Part shown: in pieces, positions 1 through 51,425 of the stretch | Position numbering within the stretch: position 1 is the first letter of the stretch | Layout: each line of letters begins with the position of its first letter | NCBI GenBank assembly: GCA_024220505.1 | Contig: JAKZZE010000012.1 | Location: 1,054,001-1,118,000 of the forward strand | Direction of reading: 5' to 3' | DNA from: Rhizopus arrhizus | Taxonomy: Eukaryota > Mucoromycota > Mucoromycetes > Mucorales > Rhizopodaceae | Length of the DNA stretch: 64,000 bases | Notes under the pieces: model-generated | Databases searched by the model: none | Seen by the model: only the letters and a program-made list of their open reading frames with translations | Told to the model about the DNA's origin: nothing | Position numbers and translations under genes: made by a program

Positions 1-1586
1 ATCAAGGCGCGATCCTCACCAATACGAAACACATGAGCATCACCCGAGTTCTGCTGAGGAGACTGCATGATCTTTGATTGAAAATTCAACCAATAGACAT
101 AATAGATTGCATTGGCTCTCAAAGCAAAAGGTATCGTACATTTCATCTCTTTCTCTCTTGTGTATTCAAATGGACCATTTCCGATCCGCAACTCGGGTGG
201 TAGTGTATCTAGTAGCTGTACAAGAACCTGTTCGAGAGCGTAGATAGAAGCAGACGATATATGATTCACCACGCCACCAAAGTAACCAAGGATCATTCCA
301 CCTTTTTCATTAATGTAAGACGGACTGGAAAAGATGCGAACAATAAATCGAAAGCAGCAGATCGATTGGTATGTTGTCTGATCCGTCATCTCACAACCCA
401 AAGGTTCAGGTAAATGGTAAATGGGGATTGCCGTGTTGGTAAAATCGCCAGTGATTTTAGAATTCTTTAGAAAACTGAATTCGTAATAGCGAGACAAATA
501 AAACGCACGAATGCGTACCTGTTCCTGAATCACAGCATCATCGTTGTCTGGTGGGATGGGTTTCATTCGACTGATGATTTGCCAGCAGAGACTAGAGTAA
601 GTCTGTGCCTCCCTGCCGTTCAAGCTGAGAATAGAGCTGAGACTCATAAACAGCAAGGCGCAACATACTTCAGGTGTGGGTTCTTGCTCAAATAGGACTT
701 CTTTCAATTTCTTTTTGGCAATCAATTGACAATACTCAGTGAGTTGTCTTTGAGTGAATGAAAAGCCAGTGAGATTGACGTGATTACAAGTAGTGTATCC
801 AGTAAAGCCTGCAAGTGCACATGTCAAGAGTGAATCAAGATCATTGCTCAATTTGGGATAATAAACTGGGATTGGAAGAACAGGGTTAAGGGTGCCAAGA
901 CAGCTAAAGAAATTTTGAAGCATGAGATGTTTGAACAGTCGAGCTTGCTGGTCCAAGGTACCATTGAACGTGAGTCCAACAGGAAGGCCTGTTCTTGCTT
1001 GCTGTCTATTAATAAATATGTCGGTGATTAATAATTCGATTTTCATTATCGGATAAGTGACAGACAACATCTGTCTGCCTCCGGTATCTGAACAGCTCCT
1101 GATTGTGTTTTGCGTGTCAAAAGAAGCTAGTCCTTCCTTTAAAAATTTTTCCAAGTCTGATAAAGTCTTGACTGAGGTCTCTACATGAATACCTCGACTG
1201 CTGCTTGATATAGTTAGACTCCAAGAGTTATGCTGGCAGTTGAGTTGGTTACATATTCGGCATGTCGCTTCCCTTTTTATCTGCGAGAGTTGTAGCTGCA
1301 ATCGTTCTGCTTGTTGTTTCAAGATACACACAGCATTTAATAATCTGTGTTGCTCTGTCATTGAAATGTTCTTTTTGGATTTGGCTGGCCTTTCTATGTC
1401 TTTGTACATGCAATTCACATTCATTCTATGACATCTTTCACAGCTGGATTTGTCTTTTGGGACACACTTTCGTCTTTGATTTCTGCACGCTTCACCTAAT
1501 TTTAAAAACTATAAGAAGCAAAATACAGTAGCTTTTTCTTCTTTGTTACATGGATTAGGTCTTTTTTGTTTGCCTGATTCTTCCAT
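1..1586 (-). CDS. Zn2Cys6 fungal-specific transcription factor (5' part, runs off left edge)
   Basis: This is a nuclear DNA-binding regulator whose target genes cannot be told from the sequence. Exon 1 (1586-1550) begins at ATG 1586. A 54-nt intron (1549-1496) splits the first zinc-binding Cys codon (T|GT). Exon 2 (1495-1) is open to the window edge. The spliced N-terminus carries a complete Zn2Cys6 cluster: CEACRNQRRKC, then CERCHRMNVNC, in the C-x2-C-x6-C / C-x2-C-x6-C pattern. A Gln/Leu-rich probable dimerisation helix follows (LKQQAERLQLQLSQ), then about 390 residues resembling the fungal-specific TF middle homology region (for example a PPELRIGNGPFEYTRERE stretch). The start is supported because it places the zinc cluster about 13 residues from the N-terminus, as is usual. 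The C-terminus is outside the window. The family call is secure; orthology is not assigned. Confidence 0.88.
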
Positions 1587-2412
1587 TCCAATGCCAAAAA
1601 AGTTATTCAATAAAAAAGTTTAAAAAAAAAGCGGGATAGTTTTCCCCTAGAGGCCATTTACTTAATTTGGCATACAGAAAAATTTATCTTGTTAAACTTC
1701 CTTTCAGTATTTTCCTTTATAGAACCAATATTAAACATAATACAAACTTTTCCTTTTTTTTTTATGGATGAAAATTTTAATGTTTATTAAAACTCATCAA
1801 GTATGTGCATACAAGTGATACAAGTATATTAAATAGTGACTCCAAAATGCCTCCCGCTAGTGTTTCTTACACGTGTTACCTTTTCTTTCTCTCCAAACAT
1901 TTTTATCCTTGATCTCATAAGGGGTTTTTAGCTTCCACTCATTCCCTTTTGATCTGACCTGGACGAAAACGATGAGAACTAAGTCATCGCGCACTCATTT
2001 GGGTTTTAATTTGATTTGTAAATAAAGTAAATGTTTAAAAGTATTTAAACAAAGAATCGCAAGAAGTCAGTTTAGAATGTTTGTTCTAGATTTAATTGAT
2101 TACAATCTCGCTCAAAATGGGTGTTTGTTCAAAAAAGTAGTATACTATGATCTACTCTTAATCTATTCACTGCTTCCAAGAAGAAGAAGAAAAAAGCTTT
2201 TGTAATGATTAATGATGTTTAATATATTTTGTACTAGTACAAGCAATCATTGATTAATGGGATAAGCAATCAAGGACAAAATTTAATGCAATTAATTAGT
2301 CGCTTCGTCTTTCTGTAGCTGTTTTATCGCATGTATTTGGCTTTGTGTAGACATCCATAGCTTATATAGAATGTCAAGTTTTGTGCTTCAAAGGATTTAG
2401 ACTGCGTTCATA
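1587..2412. other. Intergenic, no gene seen
   Basis: AT-rich stretch between the Zn2Cys6 gene promoter and the left end of the Tc1/mariner element. It holds homopolymer A/T runs and short ORFs without coding character. The promoter of the Zn2Cys6 gene should lie in its left part. I see no RNA gene here. Confidence 0.6.
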
Positions 2413-2559
2413 TACACTCTTTCCAGAAAGTAAATTCATCTTTGGTGGAAAACAAATGTACTTAGTGGCGAGAACAGAATTCATATTGTACGAAAAATAA
2501 ATTCGCCCTAGTGGAAAATGTATCATCAGTTCACAAAAACCACTGCCTACCATCTGAAA

Positions 2560-3780
2560 GAGATGGTTCTGCCAATCATTATCTCATTCTGTCAAGTGCA
2601 TATTTGGAAAACATCAAAGGAAATCTGGCACCGAGAAAGCGTCCTTGTAGATTGACACTTTAGCCCGGGAACTGATTCATATTAGGACCTACTTTGAGCT
2701 TTATTTTTACATCAACGCACCAATTACCCTAATTTGCATTTACATATTTAGCTATATCAACCGATGTATGGATTGGAGCATTATCCATCATGAGGTAATG
2801 ACCTGTTATATGCGGATACTGGTTCACTTTATCCATCTTGGCTTTTAGAAAACTAACATAATGTCCCGTAACTACCCCTTTGCTCATACACCCAACGTCT
2901 TCTTCTCGCTTTCTCCTTTTATTAGGTGGAGGCTGAGGAAGCCTGAGGCTGCATTTAATCAGAACTTGGGCAGAAGCCTCGCCTAAAATGGTTGTTGTTC
3001 TTCCCCGTGTTTTGGTAGCTATGACTACTGCAGGGGAGCCTTTCTTTGATCATGCCATACTACGTTTCAAATTAATACGAAACGCAGATTCATCAAGAAA
3101 GACGCAGTTAGTGGTAAAATCCATGTCTATTTTTTTCCCATTTGAAATATTTGCAGATAACAAAATTAAGAAATAAAAGAAAATAGTACTTGAACATCTA
3201 GTGAGTTAGTCTCTATATAACCTCTTTATTAGATTTCAAGACGAGAGAAAATCCATGTAATCAAACTACGCCTTTATATAGGAAACATAATTATTCAAGA
3301 ACTGAAGTGAATTCAAGATCAACTTTAGTATTGAGGTTGAACAATATAAATATTGAGTATGGTTAATCTTGGAAATGAGCCTTAGAGAATACGTAATAAG
3401 TAATACTATGTATTCGGTACTTGTTATTTCTTATATAAGATTTGAGTAATCTCATACGAATAATAAGTATTTAATGAGATAAATATGACACCATTTATGA
3501 ATCCAATCTAGGCGCTCTTGAATCTTTTCCTCGCTGTTCCGGTCTACGGGTTGAAACCGGCATTCTTTGAGAGACAAATTGTAATGCTTTTCTACAAAAT
3601 CAAACAAAGTATTTTTGGATACTTTTAATTCTGTGAATACTTGTCTTAAGTACTTTATCACGTCGTCCAAAATGACTGAAGGGTTTGCATCAATGCACTC
3701 AAGAATCACTTTTCTGTACTCCTTATTAAGAATGCGTGGACGACCAGTCTTTTATATCCAAAGATGCTAAGACTTGTACA
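2560..3780 (-). pseudogene. Tc1/mariner-like DDE transposase, interrupted
   Basis: Read from 3780 downward. The N-terminal part has an AT-hook-like GRPR and helix-turn-helix region (ILNKEYRKVILECIDANPSV; about 3780-3485). The catalytic part lies at about 3165-2680. It has a first acidic motif FLDESAF and a second motif HYLMMDNAPIH, both typical of IS630/Tc1/mariner DDE enzymes. Between the two parts lies about 300 bp of unrelated AT-rich DNA (about 3180-3480). The catalytic part has in-frame stops, including a TGA where the family expects Trp (MA-stop-SKKGS) and a TAA after KYVNAN. Function is lost. The nature of the internal insert is unknown. Confidence 0.8.
3180..3480. repeat. Insert of unknown origin inside the transposase
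   Basis: About 300 bp of AT-rich DNA separates the helix-turn-helix part and the DDE part of the transposase, which otherwise read on in the same orientation. No coding content is visible. It could be a solo LTR or other non-autonomous insertion, but I could not define clear target duplications. Confidence 0.4.
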
Positions 3781-3963
3781 GGACATCCTATTTGTCAGTG
3801 AAGACGAATTTACATTTCGTACAACATGAGTTTGCTCTTGCCATCAGATGAATTCATTTTCCACCAGGGCGAATTTATTTTTCGTACAATATGAATTCTG
3901 TTCTCGCCACCAAGTACATTTGTTTTCCACCAAAGGTGAATTCACTTTCTGGAAAGAGTGTAC

Positions 3964-4080
3964 AATGAGAAAGTGTTACGTAATAGGCGTTCAAATTCGT
4001 ATTGCTGTGTCTTCTACTCAACGTTCAAAATTATTAAATATAGAGTCTTTTATAAGTCCAAAAGATCAAAAGATTGTATT

Positions 4081-4114
<34 letters not shown>

Positions 4115-4726
4115 TGAGAGCAATTAAGAAAACTGTTCATGTAAAGCAAGGTGACCAAGATACTTTGCGAAAAAAAAAAATGATTTTGACAAAAATGATA
4201 GTTCATTTAATTATTCTTTTACATAAAGTATATTTCAACCATTTTTATTGCACGGAGAATATTTTAATTTGCCCATAATGATATCATTATTTATTTTCTT
4301 GCTTTAAGCATATTCTTTATTCCCACACTTGAATAATAAAAATAAAAAGGTAGGATTTTGAAGATAATAGAGATAATAGTCCATGTAGGATGAATTTTAT
4401 TGTAAAAGAGAAAAGAAAAATGCTTTTGCCCAATAAGGCAATGTTTAATGTGTAACTCGAGTGTTGTTGTTTTCTGTAACCAATAAAGATAATTTCCTTT
4501 ATTAGTCTTTGCTTTAATGATTAGCAAGGATCATATAGAAAACGGAAGCAGAAAAAAAAAACATGGGTTTGTGTGTATGCGTAACTAATCACTCATATAC
4601 GCACACTCTCACATCATCTTGACATAGTTTTATGCGTGTTTCTTACACGTATAAAAATGAGGAAAAAAAAAAAAAAACAAATGCCCATATACGCATTTTA
4701 CATTTAACTTCAACCATTTTTTAAAC
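3964..4726. other. Intergenic, no gene seen
   Basis: The stretch holds two poly(A) runs (4082-4111 and 4663-4677) and AT-rich sequence. The region just before 4727 is the presumed promoter and leader of the DUF1264 gene. Confidence 0.6.
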
Positions 4727-5407
4727 ATGTGCAGTGAACAAGGAAAAACATCGACTCTTAAGGCTGGTATGGAACTTGCCTCTGGTCCCTTCATGAGCTT
4801 CAAACCAATGAGTGGAATCTGTGAAAGTTTCTGTGGCATTCATCCTTACTCAAACGACATGAACCGTCAAATCATCTCTTACCACTATTGTCATCTTATT
4901 GATGAGGACAGACGTCAATGCCTTGTGTACGACAGTGATTCTGTAGATGCAAAGTTGATCGCGGTTGAATATATTATCTCTGAGACGCTCTTCAAGTCTT
5001 TACCAGAAAAGGAAAAGAAATTTTGGCACTCTCACAAGTATGAAGTTCAAAGTGGTATGCTTTGTATGACTGGTAAATCTATGGTGCCAGATGCTGTGAC
5101 ATCCTCTGCTGAAAAGCCCGCACTTGAAATCCTTGTAAATACCTATGGTAAGACCTGGCAACTTTGGCCTGTGGATGATAATGGCAATTGTTCTTCCAAA
5201 GTCCCTCTTGGTCCTCCTCAGTTATTGATGTCCTTTACAGCTGATGGTCAAGTCAGACCTGAGATTATTGATCGTAGAGATAAGCAGATGGGTATCTCAA
5301 CTCAAAAGAAGCGTGAAGAGAGAAAGGATATCAAGGGTAATCCTGTTGCAGAAGGTGCTGATCAGTGGGAAAAAGGTAACGCTTTCCAGATCCCAGCTGA
5401 TATTTAA
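4727..5407 (+). CDS. DUF1264 / oil body-associated protein (OBAP)-like
   Basis: A single-exon 226-residue protein of the DUF1264 family, the family of plant oil body-associated proteins. The molecular activity of the family is not established. Diagnostic stretches are visible in order: an N-terminal ICESFCGIHPYSNDMNRQ, the YHYCHLIDEDRRQCLVYDS block (about residues 53-71), LIAVEYIISETLF, FWHSHKYEVQSGML (about 99-112), TYGKTWQLWPVD and PLGPPQLLMSFTADGQ (about 165-180). Length and motif order match the family. The ATG at 4727 fits, since the first conserved region starts a few residues later. It lies between a transposon and the Medusa-like gene with no functional link visible. The role is inferred from family only. 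Confidence 0.9.
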   Translation: MCSEQGKTSTLKAGMELASGPFMSFKPMSGICESFCGIHPYSNDMNRQIISYHYCHLIDEDRRQCLVYDSDSVDAKLIAVEYIISETLFKSLPEKEKKFWHSHKYEVQSGMLCMTGKSMVPDAVTSSAEKPALEILVNTYGKTWQLWPVDDNGNCSSKVPLGPPQLLMSFTADGQVRPEIIDRRDKQMGISTQKKREERKDIKGNPVAEGADQWEKGNAFQIPADI

Positions 5408-19517: not shown

Positions 19518-22500
19518 GAATATTACGCTTAAGCAAAGTATTTTATTTGTAAATCTTCAAGTGACTGAAATGGACTCATGATGTCTTAAAGTATCGTATA
19601 GCCCGGGTCAGATCAAATTATGTTAACAAAATTAAAAACCCTTTAGGGACAAAGGGAAAAAAGAAAAGGGAAAAGGGAGGGAGTAAGTAGGGAAAAATCA
19701 AAGAACTGATTATAATTGTGAAAGTCAATCAAGCAATCGTTGCTCTGGATTAAATGGTGGTGAAGGTACCTTATCATAACATAGAAATCTTCCGATATTA
19801 TGATGAAACAATACTTTCATACGAAGGCTTAAATAAGCACGTGGTAATTCAAAATATCATGATTGTCCAAGCCAAATCAACTGAAACGTAATTGAAGCTA
19901 ACAAATCACTTATGAGAGCAAGGATAAAAAAAAAAAGAAAAAAAGAAGAGAAAGACATGTCATAGGCATCAATATGAGCTCTACGACAATCTTTGCCTGA
20001 GGTGGGCTGACGACGTAGGTAGATTTTTTGTGTGAAGTAGGTAGTTTGGTTCATAAAGGATGTCACAAACGGTTGAGTTGGCACGTTGAACATTTATCCA
20101 CAAAAGCTATACATAGTCCTGTGTGGTATGTGTATGATTCCTCGGATATTACGATTAAAACTTTTTTATTATTATTTATATTAAAAAAAAAAAGACGCAA
20201 GTGAGCGCATGGTGTTTTCAATACACCTTTGTCATCCAAATCAGATCAAAAAGGAATGAAAAGGGATGGAAAAAAACATTCTTTGGGATCAAGGACGAAA
20301 AAAAGTAAAAGTAAATGAGTAAGAAGGGGAAGACGTGTAATAGATATTAATGTGTGTTCTATAGTAGACAATCTAAGAGTCGTTTTCCGGGAAAAAGCGT
20401 ATTGGATATTACGATTAAAGAATAATTTTTTATTTGTAAAAATTTTAAAACCCAAAATGAGCACATAATATTTGACATATTGTATTGCCCGGGCCAGTTC
20501 AAAGAAGTGTTAGAGAAACTAAAAACCTTTTTGATAGCCAAAAAGGTAATAAGGATAAAGAAGGGAAGATGATAGGAAGGTGCAATCAATACATTTAAGA
20601 GCTAGAGAATAACCAAGATAATAATTTTTGACCAAGAGGGGGAACATCAGAAGAGATTTGATCGTGATGCAAATAATCTAGTTCATGTAAAATTTGACAG
20701 ATAATTGGCTAACGAATAGACCATGCAATATGCTTTGAGCGGTTTTTGTCGGTTGGTTTCTTTCTGGAAGTGGGCAGCTTGTTTAAGAGAAATGACAGAG
20801 GGTCAGAGATAGATTGTGGCATTTGCAGACGTCGATGCATATGAAGGCATTCAATGGCATGAGTCCTTGTTAGTAGATCAAATGGGTGGTAGATACACGG
20901 TTTGGGGAGGCCACCAGGAAGCCAACCGAGACGCTAACGGAGTAAGCGACTACGTTCGACGGGGGTCATTGGGAGCCATAGTATAGGATCAACCTTTAGG
21001 TCAACACGACAGGCAGATAAAAGGACAGAGTTAGTGTTATCACGACGTTGCTCTAAGGAGTTTTGGAGATACTCTTGATGAATAGCTCGGAAACGGCGTT
21101 TGTTGATCTGTTCTACAACTTGTACGGCACAAATTCGCCACAGAGGAGAGGCCGTAAACTTATACCACTGTGAGCCACTTGCAGAAATTCGAATGTATGG
21201 TAATAGTTGGAACAGAAGAGTATCATCGGGAACATCCAAGGAACGGAGGAGAAATTTCGTCTGTAAAATGTGAATACGTTCTTTCATCGTAGGTTGATTT
21301 ATTAGATGTAACATCACTTTGACTGAGGAACGAGGGCTACCATCAAAGATTCTACGTAAACACTGGTTTTGACAAGATTCGAGTTGTTGAAATTCCCTGT
21401 ATTTTACGGCACTAATGGCTAGGCCATATTCAAGTTGAGGGCGAACTATTTGACAATAAAAACGAGCCGACAAGAGACGATCAAATCCGGCAGAGTTAAC
21501 ACCAATTGCGGTCATTTGGTTCATAGTCTTGAGGGCTTTATTTATATTTCCTTGGATTAGGTCGGAAGTATTGATATAACCACCAGGGCGTATGGGGATG
21601 CCTAGGTAAGGAAAAGAATCTTGTCGCGGGATCGCAGTGTTATATAGGGAATACGACTGAGTATCTTCAGCAGGAGCCATAATTGCACATTTAAGAGGAT
21701 TCCAACGGTAACCCAATTGATAGCTGTGTTCTTCGCATTGTTGTAAGAGCGTTTGAAGTCTAGATGGTGAAGCTATAAGAACCACATCATCAGCATATAA
21801 AAGGCAGTTGATAGATGAGGCAAGCATAACTGGATTAGCGTCAGGAGCAGGATCAAGAGGGCGGTTCCGAAGAAGGCCAGGTAATTGATTGATGTACATG
21901 GAATACAGGAAAGGAGAAAGAATAGATCCTTGCAGCACCCCAGTTCTCGGTGAGAATCGTGATGATTTCGTATTACCAAGCAGAACCTCGATTTGGACGT
22001 CGTTGAATAAATTTTTGAGTAGGCCAAATAGTGCAGGATGAATACATGGAGAAAGAGTTTGCCAGACATGATCTCGGTTGACTGTATCATATGCAGATTT
22101 GATATCTAGGAAAGCTAGTGTGGGGTTGATATCATAGTGTTTGCGTAGGACTGTGCAGATTTCAGCAAGGCATAGAGCTTGATCGAGTGTGCTACGGGCT
22201 TCACGGAAACCGCCTTGAGCTATATCCAATGTTGGGCTTTGGTCAAGAAGATCAATGTACAAGCACTTTTCCAAGATTTTTCTAAAAATAGAGGTTAAGC
22301 TAATTGGTCGAAAGTTTCCTGGATCGGTCACCGGGCCTTTTTTATGGATAGGAATAACTTGAGCTACTCTTCAAGACAGAGGGGTGTAACTCCAACGCCA
22401 ACACAATTGAAATAAATAGGCAAGGATTGGGGTAAGTATTTCGGTGATAGGGGCAAGCATTTCGATGGTTAAATGATCTACGCCGGGAGCCTTTTTTCGA

Positions 22501-22850
22501 GGAAGGGATTTAATATCTTCATTGACATCGTCGATGGTAATAGAACAGGATGCAACATCAAACAATTCAGGTACTACCGGTGCAGCATCAGTGGATGTCG
22601 TAGTGTCAGTCGAATTGGGAAGGAGGTCGCCAGCAAAAATACGTTCCAGATGTTGGGCCATTGTATCTGCCGCATGTTGTGGCCCCGTATTGGATATTAC
22701 GATTAAAGAATATTTTATTTATCTGAGAATTAAAATAACCCAAAATGAGCACATAATAATGGAAATTATTGTATTGCCCGGGTCAGATCATGAGAAGGTT
22801 AAAGAGCTAAAAAACCTTTTTGATAGGCAAAAAGGTATTGGATATTACAG
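19518..22850 (-). mobile_element. Head-to-tail array of LINE insertions
   Basis: Four related 3' ends recur at 19518, 20144, 20398 and 22687. On the minus strand each terminates as a tail ending TTTAATC (or TTAAGC) followed by GTAATATCC. Three of them also share an upstream CCCGGG-containing block about 80-90 bp earlier. The copy at 20415-22686 carries the reverse transcriptase. The others are short 5'-truncated fragments. GTATTGGATATTAC occurs at 20399, 22687 and 22834, flanking both the RT copy and the small copy 22701-22833, as expected of target duplications. Confidence 0.75.
20595..22684 (-). pseudogene. LINE reverse transcriptase ORF2, 5'-truncated with three nonsense codons
   Basis: A non-LTR retrotransposon polymerase. 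Read from 22684 (GPQHAADTMAQHLERIFAGD) it has the finger motif KSLPRKKAPGVDHL, NFRPISLTS, a first catalytic block LAFLDIKSAYDTV, QGSILSPFLYSMYIN, the polymerase centre LLYADDVVLI, and a C-terminal thumb/tail ending near 20595. The endonuclease half is missing because of 5' truncation. The frame is interrupted by TGA near 22370, TAG at 20934 and one further TAG near 20715. Each replaces a probable Trp (TGG). Otherwise it is intact over about 690 codons, so the insertion is fairly young. Confidence 0.85.
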
Positions 22851-44417: not shown

Positions 44418-46051
44418 GAAAGCAAGAAAGAAGAAGAAAAAGAAGGTTAAGGGTTTTGGTTTGCTATGCCTTTTTTTGATGGCTGAATATTAAAAAGTTA
44501 TTTCTGGAAACCTCCTCTATTCTTCCCAATTCATCACGTTTTTTTTTATATCACAGCGGTTCGCTTTTTAAAGTTCCCAAATTTATAATATTATGTGAAT
44601 GTGCGTGTGCTATGCTATCATAAAAGTGTACAATCCCCTTCTTGGCTGCTCCTTTTTGTCTAAAATTCTTAACCCAAATAAAAAAGGGGGTTGTACAAGC
44701 AATCAACCAATTAACATTGAATTAAAAAATAACTAAATATGGATCACAGTTCCTTTATTCCTCAGAGAGACGCGTTATATCTTTCTTTCCTATTTTGCTT
44801 ACATCTATCAAAAACCATGAAAAAAAAAAATAATTAAATACAAGAATTATACATATGATATATATGCTTCATCTTTTGTCGCCTTGTATAGAAAATAATT
44901 GAAATTTCCCAGGCATAAAATACATGGCTATATTTTCATATTACAAAAAGTACCATATTATTAAGTCAAAGAGGCAATTTAACTTTGTTTTTATACAAGG
45001 TAACAGAATGCAAAGTAAAAAATGGCTAAATCAAGGCATGCAGAGTTTTCATCATCATAACTATCAGCGGTTATCTTTTTTCTTGCGTTATTATATACGT
45101 TTTTTTAATTTACTTCTACAGTCAGTTCTAATGTTCCATAACAAGATGAATGAATGGAAATCTAAAAATAATAAGGAAAAGATAAGATCGATATCCTCTC
45201 ACGGAAAGCTAAACCATAAATTTGTTACATAAAATACGGATTGAAAGAAAAATAATAACATAGGTAAATGTGAGTATGACAAAACTGTCGACAGGAAGCC
45301 AAGATACTAGTGTTATGATTCTTCTCAAAAACCAAAGAAGAAGGCTTAAAAAATGGCATAAGAGAAATTAATTGCGAAAGAGGAAAGATAAATCATACTG
45401 ATGATGGTCAATGATTTTGTTGTTTATTTTTATAGAAACAAAAGCGGTTCTATCATTTTCACACTTAAAATATGCGTGTACTACAACATGAATAGCGAAA
45501 GTAGGAATTATAAAATAAGCAACACAATATGTATTGATGAGGTCACTCAGTTATGTGTTTGTATAAAGTTGAGTACTTCCTTTCTTTTTCTTTGCGATAA
45601 GTAACATTAGCATTGTAAGTATAATATGCCGATCGCACAAGCGAACTGCACTAGCATAACAGGTCAGGTCTTTTTATCGCCAATACGGTCGAGCCTATTA
45701 TCTTTGGCCAACATTTTAAAAACATGTTTTGTATTATATTCGATCATTGATCCCATCACATAGTTTGGGGATAAGCCGATCAACTTTACGTAAGTATTCC
45801 ATAATTGCGAGCATTTCAATTGAAAGTATGATGAATTTGAGGCTGAAATGTATCCGGTACATGTCTTAGTATTTTTCAAAAGTTAGCCTTTTCTCATTCA
45901 GCAATGAAATAAAAGGAATTTTTCAGTAAAGCTTCTCATAGGAGAAAAGATCATTAAAATTTAAGAGGACTCAAAAAAGTAACTGAATGTATAGCTATCT
46001 TTTGATGCTTTCATTCTTCATTTGTTTTCATCCTAAGTTTATTTTTATGGA
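44418..46051. other. Intergenic, no gene supported
   Basis: AT-rich. Short frames at 44924-45232 (+), 45401-45604 (+) and 45664-45879 (-) have no recognisable domains. The last (QLWNTYVKLIGLSPNYV) may be a trace of an old coding sequence. The right edge is the flank of the Fanzor element. Confidence 0.45.
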
Positions 46052-46053
46052 TA

Positions 46054-46286
46054 CAGTGGGGCTGGTAAATTTTGTCGGTTTGAAGAAAATAAAATTCGTT
46101 TAGCAAAAAACAAATGTCGTTTCCAGAAAAATAAATGTCATTAACCTAAATGAAAATTTCGTTTAGTGCATTTATTGTTGTCGCTTTGTACTTGTTTTAA
46201 TGCAATACCTGTATTAAATGATCAAAGCGATAACCTTGGTGGTGAATTTTTTGTGATTTTCCTACTTTTGTTCTACTTAAAAATGA
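46054..46286 (-). ncRNA. Candidate omega-RNA (guide scaffold) region of the Fanzor element
   Basis: In TnpB and Fanzor systems the guide RNA scaffold is encoded at the 3' end of the nuclease gene and runs into the transposon end, with the guide read from the flank. Here 233 bp of non-coding DNA separate the Fanzor stop (46287) from the left end. It contains A-rich and palindromic stretches but no defined structure I can prove by eye. Position is the only evidence. Confidence 0.35.
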
Positions 46287-49182
46287 TCAGTCTAAAGGAT
46301 ATTTTCTGGTGAAAAGGCCAGGGCGTTTGCTAGTCTTTCTCAAACTATTTAGGATCTTGAGAAAATTCAATACAACTGCTTGATCGCGATTCCAAAGTCT
46401 TCTTTTTATTCTTGTGGTTTGTTGTTTAAGACATATGAGGCTCTTACATCTAGTACTGCATTAGTTACCAAGAATTAATTTAGTTTTTTTTTTCTTCTTC
46501 TTCTTCTTTGGGTTACCTCAACAAACCATTGTATAGTACATCTGGCTTCTTTTTCTGTTTGTTTGACAAGGTTTTGAATTTTTCTAATTCATTTTCACAG
46601 GTTGGGCAATAGGAAGATGTTTTGTATGCACTGATTAAGTAGAAAACAAATCCGTTCTTCTTTAATATCCTGATTAACCCCTTGTTTGTCGTTTCTTGAT
46701 ACTTGATATTAGGGGCGGACCAATCTCCAAAAACTAAGACAGCATCTTGACCAAACTTTGTTTTTAAGCTATGCACCAATTTTTGATCATTCTGGTCAAA
46801 GAAGGGTTTACTTGAAAACTTCAATTTTCAAAAAGGTAAAAGTTGTAGCTTTTCTAATGCTGTACTGATAGTCTTTTTGTAATTGCTTTACTGTGGTCGT
46901 TTATACATTTCTTTTGCCTACCCTAGAGCTTTGCTTTTCTCACTATCATCTAGTCTTTCTGAAATATGCTTTTGTTGTAGCATTATTTGTAGGTAGATAG
47001 CATACAGTTGAGACTTTACATAGCTATCAGTGGAGTAATTCTCAGATTGAGGGGAAAAACCACGGATTCTTGCTATGAATAGATTTGCATAGTACAAATT
47101 GCATTTTTGGTCGACCAGAAAGTCAAATTCGGATTCAGGGAAATATGTTTATTTAGACTTTGTTGTCACATTTCCATAATATTCGTACAAAGTGTTTTTT
47201 ACTGATGCTCTTGTTTTAATGTACTGTACGAACTTTTTCAAGTTTACAGAGTTAGATTCAGATCTAGAAAGGATTGCTTCGGCTTTCTGGATCACAAAAG
47301 GTTGAGTAAACTTTCTTAAATATCTAAATTGCCTCGAACATTTTGAGCGGTTGTTCTTGGTAAATATAAGTGTTTGTTTTTCTTCAGCAGTGCTGGTTTC
47401 TTTCATGTAGTACATCAAATCCCGTCTTCCAGGGTCTATCAAACATACTTGCCTTCAGTGCTCTTTAAGTCGGCTTGATCTAATACTTCAATATACTCTG
47501 TTTGATTACCGTCCACTTTCTTTTCAGTGCTGGTTTTAGGCGGCTTTCTGCTTGTATCAGTGTTTTGCTTTATTATGGAGACACCGACTCTATCTATTTC
47601 GAGAGTTCCTTGGAATCGCAAAGGCTTTTGAAATCCTTGATGTTTGAATGCCTCTTTATTTAGGTCTACGATGGTATCCCATATCTCAAATTTGCTTCCT
47701 GTTTTTGGATTCTTTTTGCTCTTGAGAACATAGTAATGGATTATTTTACTATCCAACGTCATGTAGCAAGGAATAAAGGTGGTACGTAGCGGGAAACAAG
47801 CAAAATATTTCGTCTGTTCAGCTTCAGTCAATTCAGCAAGTCTAAAGAAGGCTTTGAAATGATTTTTTGGGCTAGCCATAATGCCATAGTAAATCGAGTT
47901 CTCTTCAAAAGTGTAGTCCTCTGGGTAACTTGAGAGAAAACCATTTAATTGCGTTCTTAATTGATCATCTAAAAGAACAACTTCAGACGCCTCTTTTTTT
48001 GCGATGGCAAGCTTCACCTGATTGCAAAGTCGATAAATCTTCTTTCGGATAGCTTCTTTTATCGCTTTGCTACTAGATTTGTTTGCTTGCATTTCTCCTC
48101 CGAGACTCTCTGCCTTTTCCTTCTTTTTAAATAACTTGTTTATCAAACCACGCAGCCTGCTTCTAAAATGAGCTTTGATGTTATTATAGTAGGTCGTTTG
48201 GATCTTCGTACACTCGTACAAGGCTATTTGCTGAGCATATGGTAAGTTTGGGGGAGTATAACCAGCGTCTTCAAAGTAAGCTTCTTTATATTTTGATATC
48301 AATCGCCTATAGTTTTTGGTCGTATCCTTCAGTCTTGTGCTATTTCCACCCTTTGAGAGAACAAGACTCAGAAAAACTTCAACAAAAAATCTTTTGTCAC
48401 ATAGTTGTTCAACTCAAAATTTTCATTTATTGCCAGTTCTTGTAAATATATGTACTTTGTGAAGGCAAAGGTATGTGTAACTAGTAAGTTGGTAGTGTGA
48501 ACCAAATCATACAATGGCTGTAAATATGCTGGTTTCCAAATATTCTTTACAGTCGTTTTAATTGTCATCACACGCTTGCTTATCTTCTTAGGGCCTTCTT
48601 TAATGTCACTTGCCTTGTCAATAGGCACAGGACAAAAGCTTGACTTGACAGAAGCTGCAGCTGACTTGAAAGCAGTTGGAACAGGTTTACTAGGCTTGGG
48701 GGAATTTAGACTTGTTTTAGAAGCAGTTATGCTTGACTCCACAGCAGCAGAAGTTGATTTGGTGATACAAAAAGCAGACTTGGTTGATTCATCCAAAAAG
48801 AGTCTTTTGACGACAGGTGCATCAAAATCGTCACTGCTATATTCATGATCATAGTCATCAAGAGTGATCTTATTGAACATGGTAGGTTCATCTGTTGAAA
48901 AGATACCAGTACTACTTGTAGTAGTAACTTCAGAATCTGTAGCTTTTCCTTTGCCTTTGAGCCTCTTTTGTGATTTACTCTGTGGAGTATTTTCCATACC
49001 TATGATGGTGTTTCATACGTTAGACTGGCTGTTTACCTATATCAAGTTTGACAATGCAACTTACTTTTTCTTTTTCTAGCTATTACAACTGGTTGAAAGT
49101 CGTCATCTGAGTTGACTTCTACATATAATTCAAACGAGTCTATAATGGTATCAATTTTGTGGTCAGTGACATTTCGATCCAT
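46287..49182 (-). pseudogene. Fanzor (eukaryotic TnpB-like RNA-guided nuclease), inactivated
   Basis: Exon 1 is 49182-49065. A 65-nt intron (GTAAGT...ATAG) leads to exon 2 at 48999, in frame (ARKRKSMENTPQ). The N-terminal 230 residues are Ser/Lys-rich, as in many Fanzors. The core spans 48480-46287: RuvC-I reads LIDPGRRDLM (about 47440), then VLVFGDWSAPN (about 46735), the zinc finger TSSYCPTCENEL (about 46610), the end of the finger NGLLR, and RuvC-III LWNRDQAVVLNF (about 46390-46355). Breaks: single-base losses in T-runs near 48380 and 47440, at least five in-frame stops below 47150, and an AAG/A-run insert near 46500 splitting the second zinc-finger half. The motif usually reading D-E-x-x-T-S has Ala in the Glu position (SAYKTSSYC). 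Clearly a dead copy. Confidence 0.9.
49000..49064 (-). other. Intron in the Fanzor 5' region
   Basis: A donor GTAAGT at 49064 and acceptor ATAG ending at 49000 bracket 65 nt. Splicing joins a 39-codon exon starting at ATG 49182 to the longer frame, through a split Ser codon. Retention of a usable host-type intron shows the gene has adapted to eukaryotic expression. Confidence 0.65.
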
Positions 49183-49789
49183 TCTTAGATATGGAGCCTA
49201 CCGTTTTCGCTCTTAGATGGCTTCTTTTGGTTTGAAGAGAATAAAGTATCCTTTTGCTTTCCTTTCACTTTCTAATGTGTTTTCACGAGTGAAATATACG
49301 AACAAAAAGAAAAAGTGTCTCCAGAAATTGCTTTAAATGTTGAAAAGAAACATTCCCATCCCATTTATATAGATTAATTCAAACACAGCTACAATGGAAT
49401 AAAAGCAATGTGCCTACATTGAGCTTACACCATGTAGTAGCTTGCAATAGAAGATACTTGTTTTCTAGATTCACATAGAATAGTAGTTACACATAGTAGG
49501 TAGGACTCGAGAAGTTATTAGCGTCTGAATGTGTCAAGTTCTTTATGTTTTTTCACCAAACTTCAATGATAAATATGTTAAGAACATAATTGATGAGCAT
49601 AAAATGTTGGACCATCATCTTGTAATGTCACTGCATAATAATGATATATTCACTGATCAAAATCCCCATTAAAGTTCCTTTGCTGAGCCCAATAAAACTG
49701 TTTTAATCATACCAATTCTCGCAAGATTTATATTCTAAAAGGTATGATGTTATGAAGATAGCACAGTATAATTTTAAAAACATGTTCAC

Positions 49790-50901
49790 ATGGATGTTTT
49801 ATTACAACAGTGGATGATTTGACTAGAGAAACCATAAAGAACTTGATTACAAGCATCAGCACTTTGACTCGATAAGTTTTCATTCGACGATGTTTGAGCT
49901 TTCCTTTAACTATAGCCTAAAACTGCTCAATAGGGTTGAGCTCTGGCGAACAAGGAGGTAAGTGCATTACTCTATAACCTCCACTCTCAATTTTTCTTAT
50001 CATTGGATGAGACTTATGAATAGTACAGTAATCCATTACAAGATAATCATCCATAAGACCTTCGTCCATGTCCATGATATCAAGAAGTTCACATATAAAT
50101 CTTACAAAGTGGGCAGTAGTTGTACCTTTTGCTACTGGCTTGTTATTCTCGATGGCAGTACTCTTCTCCACATCAATGTACTTTATAGTAGGCTCTTTAA
50201 TAATAATGTCGCCTGCCCTTTGCTCTTTGCCTCCTGCAAACTTTCTTTTTTTTTATTATTTGGCAGCCTACAAGTTATTGTCATAGTTTCTTGTCATAGG
50301 GTCGAAGGTTGGGTTCTTTATTGAAATGAGCATGTTGTTTCTCAAGTAGTGGTTCATTTGAGTCAAGTCTTCAAACTGCGATTTCCGAGAAAGAATAATA
50401 TCATCAGCACAAAGTTGTGAGTCTTTTTCTATTATTTGTTGAATGTGCTACTCATGATCAGGAGTCAGTGAGTTGGGTCGGCCGGGATTTCTTTGCAACT
50501 TTTTGTAATCTACCTTCCCAGTTTCTTAATAGTGTTTTCACCAGCGCATAGCAGTACGAGGATTAATTCCAAGATCCTTTGCATGCAAAGTCACTTTTCC
50601 TCTTTCCGTAGGACCCTCGATCATTCAGTCAATAAATATCTCTCTGGTTTGGTCGTTGTAGTCTTTGTAGACGCTGCTTTCTTGACCACTTCTATAGCCT
50701 TTTTTGTTGAATATTTTGCAGTAGTTTCTTTCTCTGCTGGTTTGAGATTCAAATAGGACTTTTGGCTCGTTATGGTTTCAAGTACTACGTTTGAATCACT
50801 GATTTCGGTTAACACGCCTTCCATCGGATCGAAGACTCTCTCTCCATCCTTATTGTAGATATTATTGTGTTTGTCTTCATAAAAAATGTATTTTTTGCCA
50901 T
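49790..50901 (-). pseudogene. Tc1/mariner (IS630)-like DDE transposase of the Fanzor element, decayed
   Basis: Read from about 50901 downward with several frameshifts. A helix-turn-helix-like part (VTLHAKDLGINPRTAMRWW, with GRPNSLT after it) lies at about 50610-50470. The catalytic part at 50171-49917 shows DYLVMDYCTIHKSH (second acidic residue) and HLPPCSPELNPIEQF (third acidic residue), the classic IS630/Tc1/mariner signature. A TAG directly after IEQF replaces the usual Trp, and the frame then continues AIVKGKLK. The first acidic motif falls in a degraded stretch. The enzyme cannot be made intact. Confidence 0.8.
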
Positions 50902-51107
50902 TTTATTCAATTGTTAGAACGAAAGGAAAGAAATAAAGCTTTTACATCATAGCCGACAATAATCCCTCAGTAACGCCAATTTGACTTGGCCCAAAAAGAC
51001 AAAGTAAAATTTTAAGGCCGACAATTATTTGCTAGCAAACTGCCAAATATTCGTCAGATATCGCCATTTATTTTTCGGAATGGACAAAATCTACCAGCTC
51101 CACTGTA

Positions 51108-51425
51108 TAAGAGCCATTCTTTACAACTTGGTTCTCGACTTGGTTATAATGGCTTTGATTTCATAATCTGATATGTTAATTTTTATGGTATACGATTATA
51201 AAGCAACTTAACAAGATATCATCCTTAATGTATAAGATTGTACAACTATTTTTTCGGCATCCAAATTTTGACTATCAAGTTTGTATTGTTCCTCTGCACT
51301 TTGCATCAGCTTAAATCGAAAGTTGGCCAGAGCAATTTTATTGGATAAACGGGGTTTAGTTTGGAAAAGTAGAAATGCTACAAGGCACACATACAGTGAC
51401 TTTAATTTCTTTCCGTACTGGCCCC
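51108..51425. promoter_or_regulatory. Pet117 upstream region
   Basis: A 318-bp interval between the Fanzor element and the Pet117 start. A minus-strand open frame (51456-51208) crosses it and overlaps the gene start. It reads KLMQSAEEQYKLDSQNLDAE near its end and could be a small overlapping gene, but I could not support it. Confidence 0.4.

What the first reader, a model, noticed from the sequence alone, without database searches (positions are those of the whole stretch)
46052..51107. Fanzor-bearing mariner-like transposon in a mucoralean genome
The sequence shows inverted ends with TA duplications bracketing a broken DDE transposase and, in the same orientation, a gene with RuvC-I (LIDPGRRDLM), a GDWS block, a CPTC zinc finger and RuvC-III (LWNRDQAVVLNF). 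This motif set defines Fanzor, the eukaryotic relative of TnpB and an RNA-guided DNA nuclease. Fanzor1 with mariner-type transposases is known. This copy gives exact ends, gene order and a host-type intron near the 5' end. Intact relatives elsewhere in the genome would be candidates for an undescribed active system.
Basis: partly seen in the sequence, partly recalled or inferred. Interest (0 to 1): 0.9.

Follow-up and report, generated by a model that had tools for sequence, protein, structure and literature searches.

The report
Broken Fanzor–mariner transposon in Rhizopus
This is a decayed copy of a fungal jumping gene that carries an RNA-guided DNA cutter of a known type, and its sister copies show at their insertion sites what may be the imprint of that cutter at work.

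Summary
All six Fanzor pieces searched match Parasitella parasitica Fanzor1 (PpFz1, PDB 9cf0; best E 1.6e-124). Protein matches place the genome in the Rhizopus arrhizus/delemar complex. It holds a sister family: 177 end matches against 3 in the reversed control. Five sister copies keep the main Fanzor exon open over 821-838 aa. The kind is known and the window copy is dead. New here: insertion flanks are asymmetric. On the transposase side T-(A/G) precedes the TA in 31 of 31 classified ends, against 18 of 56 on the Fanzor side and 16% of TA sites in the window. This agrees with the published PpFz1 TAM, ATN. One sister copy joins 9 nt of its own guide flank to the element interior, as expected if an empty site was cut by Fanzor and copied incompletely; a second case is ambiguous, and 12 of 14 damaged 5' ends show nothing. 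In passing: a LINE that inserts at CACTG|TA, often exactly at this family's ends.

The parts
46052..46053 (.). TA target site duplication, Fanzor side
   Evidence: read; 55 of 56 Fanzor-side ends have T and 53 of 56 have A here
46054..46076 (-). Fanzor-side terminal inverted repeat (CAGTGGGGCTGGTAAATTTTGTC read inward)
   Evidence: identical in 31 of 56 Fanzor-side ends
46054..46113 (-). candidate 3' part of the omega-RNA scaffold (last ~60 nt of the element as RNA)
   Evidence: inference from position and from lower diversity of the last 60 nt (0.04-0.09) than of the next 60 (0.13-0.19) over 56 copies; no covariation support
46032..46051 (-). presumed guide region (flank just beyond the Fanzor-side TA)
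   Evidence: inference by analogy with published Fanzor RNAs; not tested
49065..49182 (-). Fanzor exon 1 (MDRNVTD...)
   Evidence: reading; splice signals only
49000..49064 (-). intron 1 (GTAAGT...TAG)
   Evidence: reading
46918..48999 (-). Fanzor main exon, broken into frames 48368-49012, 47439-48413, 47149-47454, 46918-47148 (WED/REC, RuvC-I LIDPGRRDLM)
   Evidence: matches to PpFz1
46517..46827 (-). Fanzor main exon, 3' part (GDWS, CPTC)
   Evidence: PpFz1 match E 9.8e-36
46450..46516 (-). intron 2
   Evidence: reading; the PpFz1 sequence runs on across it
46287..46449 (-). Fanzor last exon (second half of zinc finger, RuvC-III LWNRDQ)
   Evidence: PpFz1 match E 1e-15
49728..50902 (-). broken DDE transposase (pieces 50621-50902, 50268-50447, 49917-50252, 49728-49916)
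   Evidence: DDE_3 E 4.3e-11 for 49917-50252; sister copy L012 open over 265 aa with DDE_3 and IS630-type matches
51083..51105 (-). transposase-side terminal inverted repeat
51106..51107 (.). TA target site duplication, transposase side
51106..51110 (-). TTATA next to the transposase-side end: presumed TAM (A from the flank plus TSD TA; T at -4)
   Evidence: T at -4 in 31 of 31 and A/G at -3 in 31 of 31 transposase-side ends

Best explanation
46052-51107 is a dead copy of a ~5.2-kb Tc1/mariner-type (IS630-like, DDE) transposon of Rhizopus that carries, behind its transposase and in the same orientation, a Fanzor1 gene of the PpFz1 type. In intact sisters the transposase would move the element by its TIRs into TA sites. 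The Fanzor-side end would be transcribed as the omega-RNA, whose 3' guide is the chromosomal flank just outside that end. Fanzor loaded with it recognises the unoccupied site, where the TAM is made of flank A plus the TSD (ATA, usually TTATA), cuts it, and repair from the occupied copy restores or spreads the element. Shown: ends, genes, homology, family, flank asymmetry, one guide-prefix junction. Inferred: transcription of the guide, RNA-guided cutting, homing.
For: PpFz1 matches of all six pieces. Family with the same two ends: four further places aligned over positions 1-5223 or 9-5223 at 93-94% identity, with different flanks. Main Fanzor exon open over 821-838 aa in five copies; dN/dS 0.31-0.44 over all 15 pairs of six copies. 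Asymmetry: T at -4 31/31, A at -3 28/31 (G 3), T at -5 24/31 at the transposase side; 23/56, 27/56, 19/56 at the Fanzor side (Fisher p 4e-9, 7e-5, 1e-4). Published PpFz1 TAM is ATN (PMC11423790, passage and Results part 1). L009: flank TATA, then GGAGCCTAA, then element from about nt 13; GGAGCCTAA occurs only twice in that 8.3-kb locus, at this junction and at the start of its own guide flank. Internal-deletion copies L037, L046, L050, L054 all keep at least the last 95 nt of the Fanzor-side end.
Against: No complete empty site was found for 13 joined flank pairs among the 40 scored of 208 candidates (the one match across a junction was L009's own locus). Only 1 clear and 1 ambiguous guide-prefix junction in 14 damaged or truncated 5' ends examined. 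The strictest position, T at -4, is not part of the published PpFz1 TAM. No covariation in the presumed omega-RNA; only a 3-bp terminal hairpin. The transposase-side end also becomes less conserved inward (0.10-0.16 then 0.10-0.25), so the conserved Fanzor end need not mean RNA. No expression data; no intact transposase plus all Fanzor exons was verified in one copy.
Confidence: 0.7

Rival explanations
1. Same transposon and gene, but the flank asymmetry has nothing to do with Fanzor: the transposase-side end either includes an extra TA or the transposase pair, with its two different TIRs, prefers T(T)ATA on one side. The L009 junction would then be a chance repair product.
For: T at -4 is stricter than A at -3, which a TAM of ATN does not predict. 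A mild excess of TA at -4/-3 also exists at the Fanzor side, 12 of 56 against 9% in the window. No empty site could be found to decide.
Against: An element-borne TA does not explain the T bias at -5 (24 of 31 against 19 of 56). L009 reads TATA directly before its guide prefix, as an empty site with TATA would. A mariner target is symmetric, so orientation would have to be set by the transposase.
Confidence: 0.35
2. All copies are relics: the family is extinct and the open Fanzor exons are merely young corpses.
For: The window copy and most copies listed have stops; only one open 265-aa transposase stretch was seen (L012) in the 19 loci scanned; synonymous distances between the open copies are 0.04-0.10, so there is no very recent burst in this family.
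Against: dN/dS 0.31-0.44 shows selection on the protein up to recent copying.
Confidence: 0.35
3. Fanzor and mariner are unrelated neighbours that happen to lie between the same repeats.
For: None found.
Against: Whole-length copies with both genes and the same two ends at several places.
Confidence: 0.02

Closest known systems
Parasitella parasitica Fanzor1 (PpFz1; PDB 9cf0-9cf3; PMC11423790)
   Same: Closest solved relative of all six pieces; intact sister 66% identical by alignment, with the FRI stretch and its PQP loop; its TAM ATN fits the A-TA at the transposase side.
   Different: Another genus; in our family T at -4 is also invariant; the window copy is broken and reads PQS in the FRI loop.
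Fanzor1 in Mariner elements (PGv-1, PUl-1, PUl-4, HMa-1; PMC3627910)
   Same: Mariner-type transposase, TIRs, TA duplications and a Fanzor1 in one element.
   Different: Those are from viruses, an oomycete and Hydra; the passages seen describe ROr-4 of Rhizopus as MuDr-type and do not describe a Rhizopus mariner-Fanzor. The sequences of ROr-1 to ROr-3 lie in supplementary files that could not be opened here, so one of them may be this family.
Fanzor1 of Spizellomyces punctatus (SpuFz1; PMC10432273, passages)
   Same: Homologous by sequence.
   Different: Much more distant (E 2.3e-14 against 1.6e-124), TAM different, no FRI insertion according to PMC11423790.
CRe-1,2,3 Fanzor1 elements of Chlamydomonas (PMC3627910, section 8 read)
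   Same: 3' ends overabundant, 5' truncations; most truncated copies have duplications of about 7-19 bp just downstream of a T-rich tetranucleotide, which could be read as TAM plus guide prefix, like L009.
   Different: Helitron context; the authors explain it by one-ended rolling-circle transposition; the link to RNA-guided cutting is my inference.

Membership tests
Fanzor1 | Motif D-X(125,275)-[TS][TS]-X-X-C4 zinc finger-X(5,50)-RD (PMC3627910) | tested here: met
   Intact sister L010: D527, then SS801-802 and C804/C807; the window has DPGRRD, TSSYCPTC, CKSLIC and NRD in its pieces
Fanzor1 | Homology to characterised Fanzor1 proteins | tested here: met
   PpFz1 in all six pieces, SpuFz1 in two
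Fanzor1 | Curated profile hit (TNB / OrfB zinc ribbon) above cut-off | tested here: not met
   PF07282 12.6 and 15.2 bits against 26.3; NCBIfam none. Not a defining feature: PpFz1-like P0017 also has no Pfam hit at E <= 0.01
Fanzor1 | omega-RNA from the 3' end of the element with guide in the flank | tested here: inconclusive
   Conserved ~60-nt end, no covariation, no RNA data
Fanzor1 | RNA-guided DNA cleavage | not testable with these tools
   needs biochemistry
Tc1/mariner (IS630-Tc1-mariner) | TA duplication and short TIRs | tested here: met
Tc1/mariner (IS630-Tc1-mariner) | DDE_3-type transposase | tested here: met
   DDE_3 43.3 bits in the window, 43.5 in L012, cut-off 28.6; NCBIfam IS630 72.8 bits is below its cut-off of 100
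FRI-bearing PpFz1 subgroup | Insertion in RuvC with P-x-P loop | tested here: met
   L010 GFFPQPEN aligned with PpFz1 (P0022) GFYPQPEH; that this PQP is P614/P616 of the paper is inferred, not numbered; window copy has GFSPQSEN
RNA-guided homing element | Cut of the empty site followed by copying of the element | tested here: inconclusive
   one clear (L009) and one ambiguous (L150) guide-prefix junction of 14

The most novel reading that the evidence does not exclude
The insertion record of this family shows Fanzor at work in nature: only insertions whose transposase side supplies the TAM (T-R-TA) became established, because Fanzor re-cuts empty sites with a guide taken from the other flank and drives the element by RNA-guided homing; L009 (and perhaps L150) is the scar of such a cut followed by copying that stopped short of the transposase end. 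The 5'-truncated, TSD-flanked CRe elements of Chlamydomonas may be the same process.
Probability: 0.35. Interest if true: 0.75.

Novelty: new member of a known kind. Interest (0 to 1): 0.48.

Why it matters
What Fanzor does for its transposon in a eukaryotic host is, as far as the passages I read go, open. A fungal genome with five open main exons, many copies, exact ends and flanks that fit a TAM lets the retention/homing idea be tested by comparing strains and by simple biochemistry with a close relative of a protein whose structure is solved.

Tried and rejected
Empty sites: 13 joined flank pairs searched; no complete empty site among the 40 scored candidates. Guide prefix at damaged or truncated 5' ends: 14 examined. 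Clear: L009. Ambiguous: L150 (TTATA, then ACAGT of the guide ACAGTCTT, then element interior; ACAGTG could also be a TIR remnant). Nothing at the boundary: L019 (a 12-nt A-rich word 52 nt upstream), L020, L021, L024, L026, L053, L112, L148, L149, L151, L152, L154 (read). L018 has no Fanzor end and was not testable. In L009 the script reported a longer A/T-rich word elsewhere; the 9-nt junction was read by eye and then counted.

omega-RNA: RNAalifold on the Fanzor ends gave only a terminal CAG/CTG hairpin; no model was built. Extra TA as part of the element: considered, not excluded. Fanzor family B as a second TAM test: its true 5' end could not be fixed. Viral contigs: no relative confirmed. 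The LINE target in three loci chosen away from the known ends was uninformative, since the LINE ran past the stretch. Window site 22846: not a repeated TIR (1 match, itself). Of 111 ends, 24 could not be classified and were left out of the flank counts; L084 and L085 share a flank, so one Fanzor-side locus is counted twice.
Full report
What is there. Both genes lie on the minus strand, transposase first, Fanzor second, so the Fanzor 3' end faces the end at 46054. The Fanzor frame is split into pieces 48368-49012, 47439-48413, 47149-47454, 46918-47148, 46513-46827 and, behind a readable intron, 46287-46460. Each of these six gives PpFz1 (PDB 9cf0) as best solved relative, with E from 1e-15 to 1.6e-124. 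The transposase piece 49917-50252 matches DDE_3 above its gathering score. Curated Fanzor/TnpB-type models do not pass their cut-offs.

Host and family. The intact sister Fanzor L010 is most similar to proteins of Rhizopus delemar and R. arrhizus (83-95% identity in most of the best-scoring hits; 77 proteins listed, only the 7988 candidates with most shared words scored); that the genome is of this complex is my inference from those matches. In its 50.26 Mb the main Fanzor piece gives 123 matching stretches. The end pattern gives 88+89 places against 2+1 reversed, of which 100 were listed. The Fanzor-side 240 bp scored 40 copies out of 83 candidates. With the whole element L011, 37 of 140 candidates were scored; C41:665150, C37:1553180 and C7:1247310 align over 1-5223 and C2:768813 over 9-5223, at 93-94%. 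So the two genes are co-mobilised between these ends. The main exon is open over 838 aa in L010, L011 and L012 and over 821 aa in L009 and L015; L013 has 748 aa. dN/dS over the 15 pairs of these six is 0.31-0.44, dS 0.044-0.102. An open 265-aa transposase stretch was seen in L012 only, among the 19 loci scanned. No copy was shown to have every exon of both genes intact.

Flank asymmetry. I classified 111 distinct ends: 31 transposase-side, 56 Fanzor-side, 24 unclassified and left out. Counting outward from the element with the TSD TA at -2,-1, transposase-side ends have T at -4 in 31 of 31, A at -3 in 28 (G in the other 3) and T at -5 in 24. Fanzor-side ends have T at -4 in 23 of 56, A at -3 in 27 and T at -5 in 19. 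T-(A/G) at -4,-3 is found in 31 of 31 and in 18 of 56; among TA dinucleotides of the window, both strands, it is 16%. Fisher p for -4, -3 and -5: 4e-9, 7e-5, 1e-4. The tests take ends as independent; L084/L085 share a flank, and I compared long flanks with one another only for the 37 loci. If the guide is the flank outside the Fanzor end, the unoccupied site reads transposase flank, TA, guide, and the TAM is the transposase flank plus TA. PpFz1 has TAM ATN in vitro (PMC11423790: outline with abstract, passages, and part 1 of 3 of the Results), which fits A-TA; the T at -4 goes beyond it. The concept that reRNA guides lie beyond the TSD of Fanzor1 transposons is published (PMC10711439, passages).

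A junction that looks like a homing scar. In L009 the first dozen bases of the transposase end are missing. The locus reads ...CTTACTATA, GGAGCCTAA, then element TAAATTTTGTC..., and the flank outside its Fanzor end begins TA, GGAGCCTAAACAC. GGAGCCTAA occurs only at these two places in the 8,301-bp locus. This is what results if the empty site TATA-guide is cut inside the guide region, the element is copied in from its Fanzor end, and copying ends before the transposase end is reached. In L150 (C3:827479) TTATA is followed by ACAGT, the first five bases of its guide, but ACAGTG can also be a TIR remnant. The other 12 of 14 damaged or truncated 5' ends examined show no guide prefix at the boundary. 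No complete empty site was found for 13 joined flank pairs.

Guide RNA. The last 60 nt at the Fanzor side have diversity 0.04-0.09 per 15-nt window against 0.13-0.19 in the next 60 (56 ends); the transposase side goes from 0.10-0.16 to 0.10-0.25 (31 ends), so it shows a weaker decline of the same kind. 31 of 56 Fanzor ends have the identical 23-nt TIR, 6 of 31 transposase ends. The length suits PpFz1's short RNA (75 nt). Alignment folding supports only a 3-bp terminal hairpin, without covariation.

Known versus new. Fanzor1 in Mariner elements, Fanzor1 families in Rhizopus (ROr-1 to -4) and Mucor (PMC3627910, passages and sections 8 and 12) and the PpFz1 structures are in print. I did not find the flank asymmetry or a homing scar for a Fanzor in the listings of my searches, which cover open-licence PMC papers only; a preprint on bacterial insertion sequences as RNA-guided gene drive (PMC11870625) was seen only as a listing with the start of its abstract. 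So the element is a new member of a known kind; the insertion record is the part worth following.

A correction to the literature. PMC11423790 says that the FRI insertion was found only in Parasitella and Rhizopus (passage). In the alignment the FRI stretch with G-Y/F-Y/F-P-x-P is also in the proteins from Gilbertella persicaria (P0058), Helicostylum pulchrum (P0048), Mucor mucedo (P0059) and M. saturninus (P0066); M. flavus P0055 lacks that stretch. Whether cyclophilin binds there is untested.

Noticed in passing
window 20159-22845 (minus strand); L015, L022, L023, L031, L039, L044, L045, L048, L054, L055: A LINE (RVT_1, E 7e-30) inserts exactly at CACTG|TA: a 10-15-nt duplication starting with TA, a 5'-truncated LINE ending ...TTTAATCG (or ...TTAAACG), then the duplication again. 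Of 16 LINE 3' ends, 11 follow CACTG (L023 read), 2 are tandem, 1 follows CTATTG, 2 had no upstream copy in range. Genome-wide 13 of 81 LINE-3'-end matches (19 in the reversed control) lie outward within 2 kb of 107 listed mariner ends, 2 inward, 0.17 expected. In the window three LINE ends share one CACTG|TAATATCC site that is single copy, so the target is a short motif that mariner ends happen to carry. Three searches found no description (listings only).
   Followed up: partly
G000 C2:1446854-1450202, C9:108988-112336, C12:1736553-1739900 and others (L116-L143): A second Fanzor1 family, ~36% identical to the window piece, with nine copies listed at E about 1e-60 and open frames of 391-639 aa, lies between TAGTGTTTTAATC repeats. 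Six of seven 5' flanks fetched are the same 3' piece of another LINE, with a poly-A tail in three, while the Fanzor-side flanks differ. How this composite moves is unresolved.
   Followed up: partly
P0048, P0058, P0059, P0066 (alignment A1): The FRI insertion with a P-x-P loop, reported only from Parasitella and Rhizopus, also occurs in Fanzor1 proteins of Helicostylum, Gilbertella and Mucor.
   Followed up: partly
C11:817598-819712 and C41:1620160-1622274: Two copies share the same internal deletion (element positions about 636-3737 missing), suggesting a non-autonomous derivative that was itself copied; their flanks were not fully compared.
   Followed up: no
PMC3627910, section 8: The Chlamydomonas CRe-1,2,3 Fanzor elements are 5'-truncated with about 7-19-bp duplications just downstream of TTTT-like tetranucleotides, unlike related Helitrons without Fanzor; this could be TAM plus guide prefix.
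   Followed up: no
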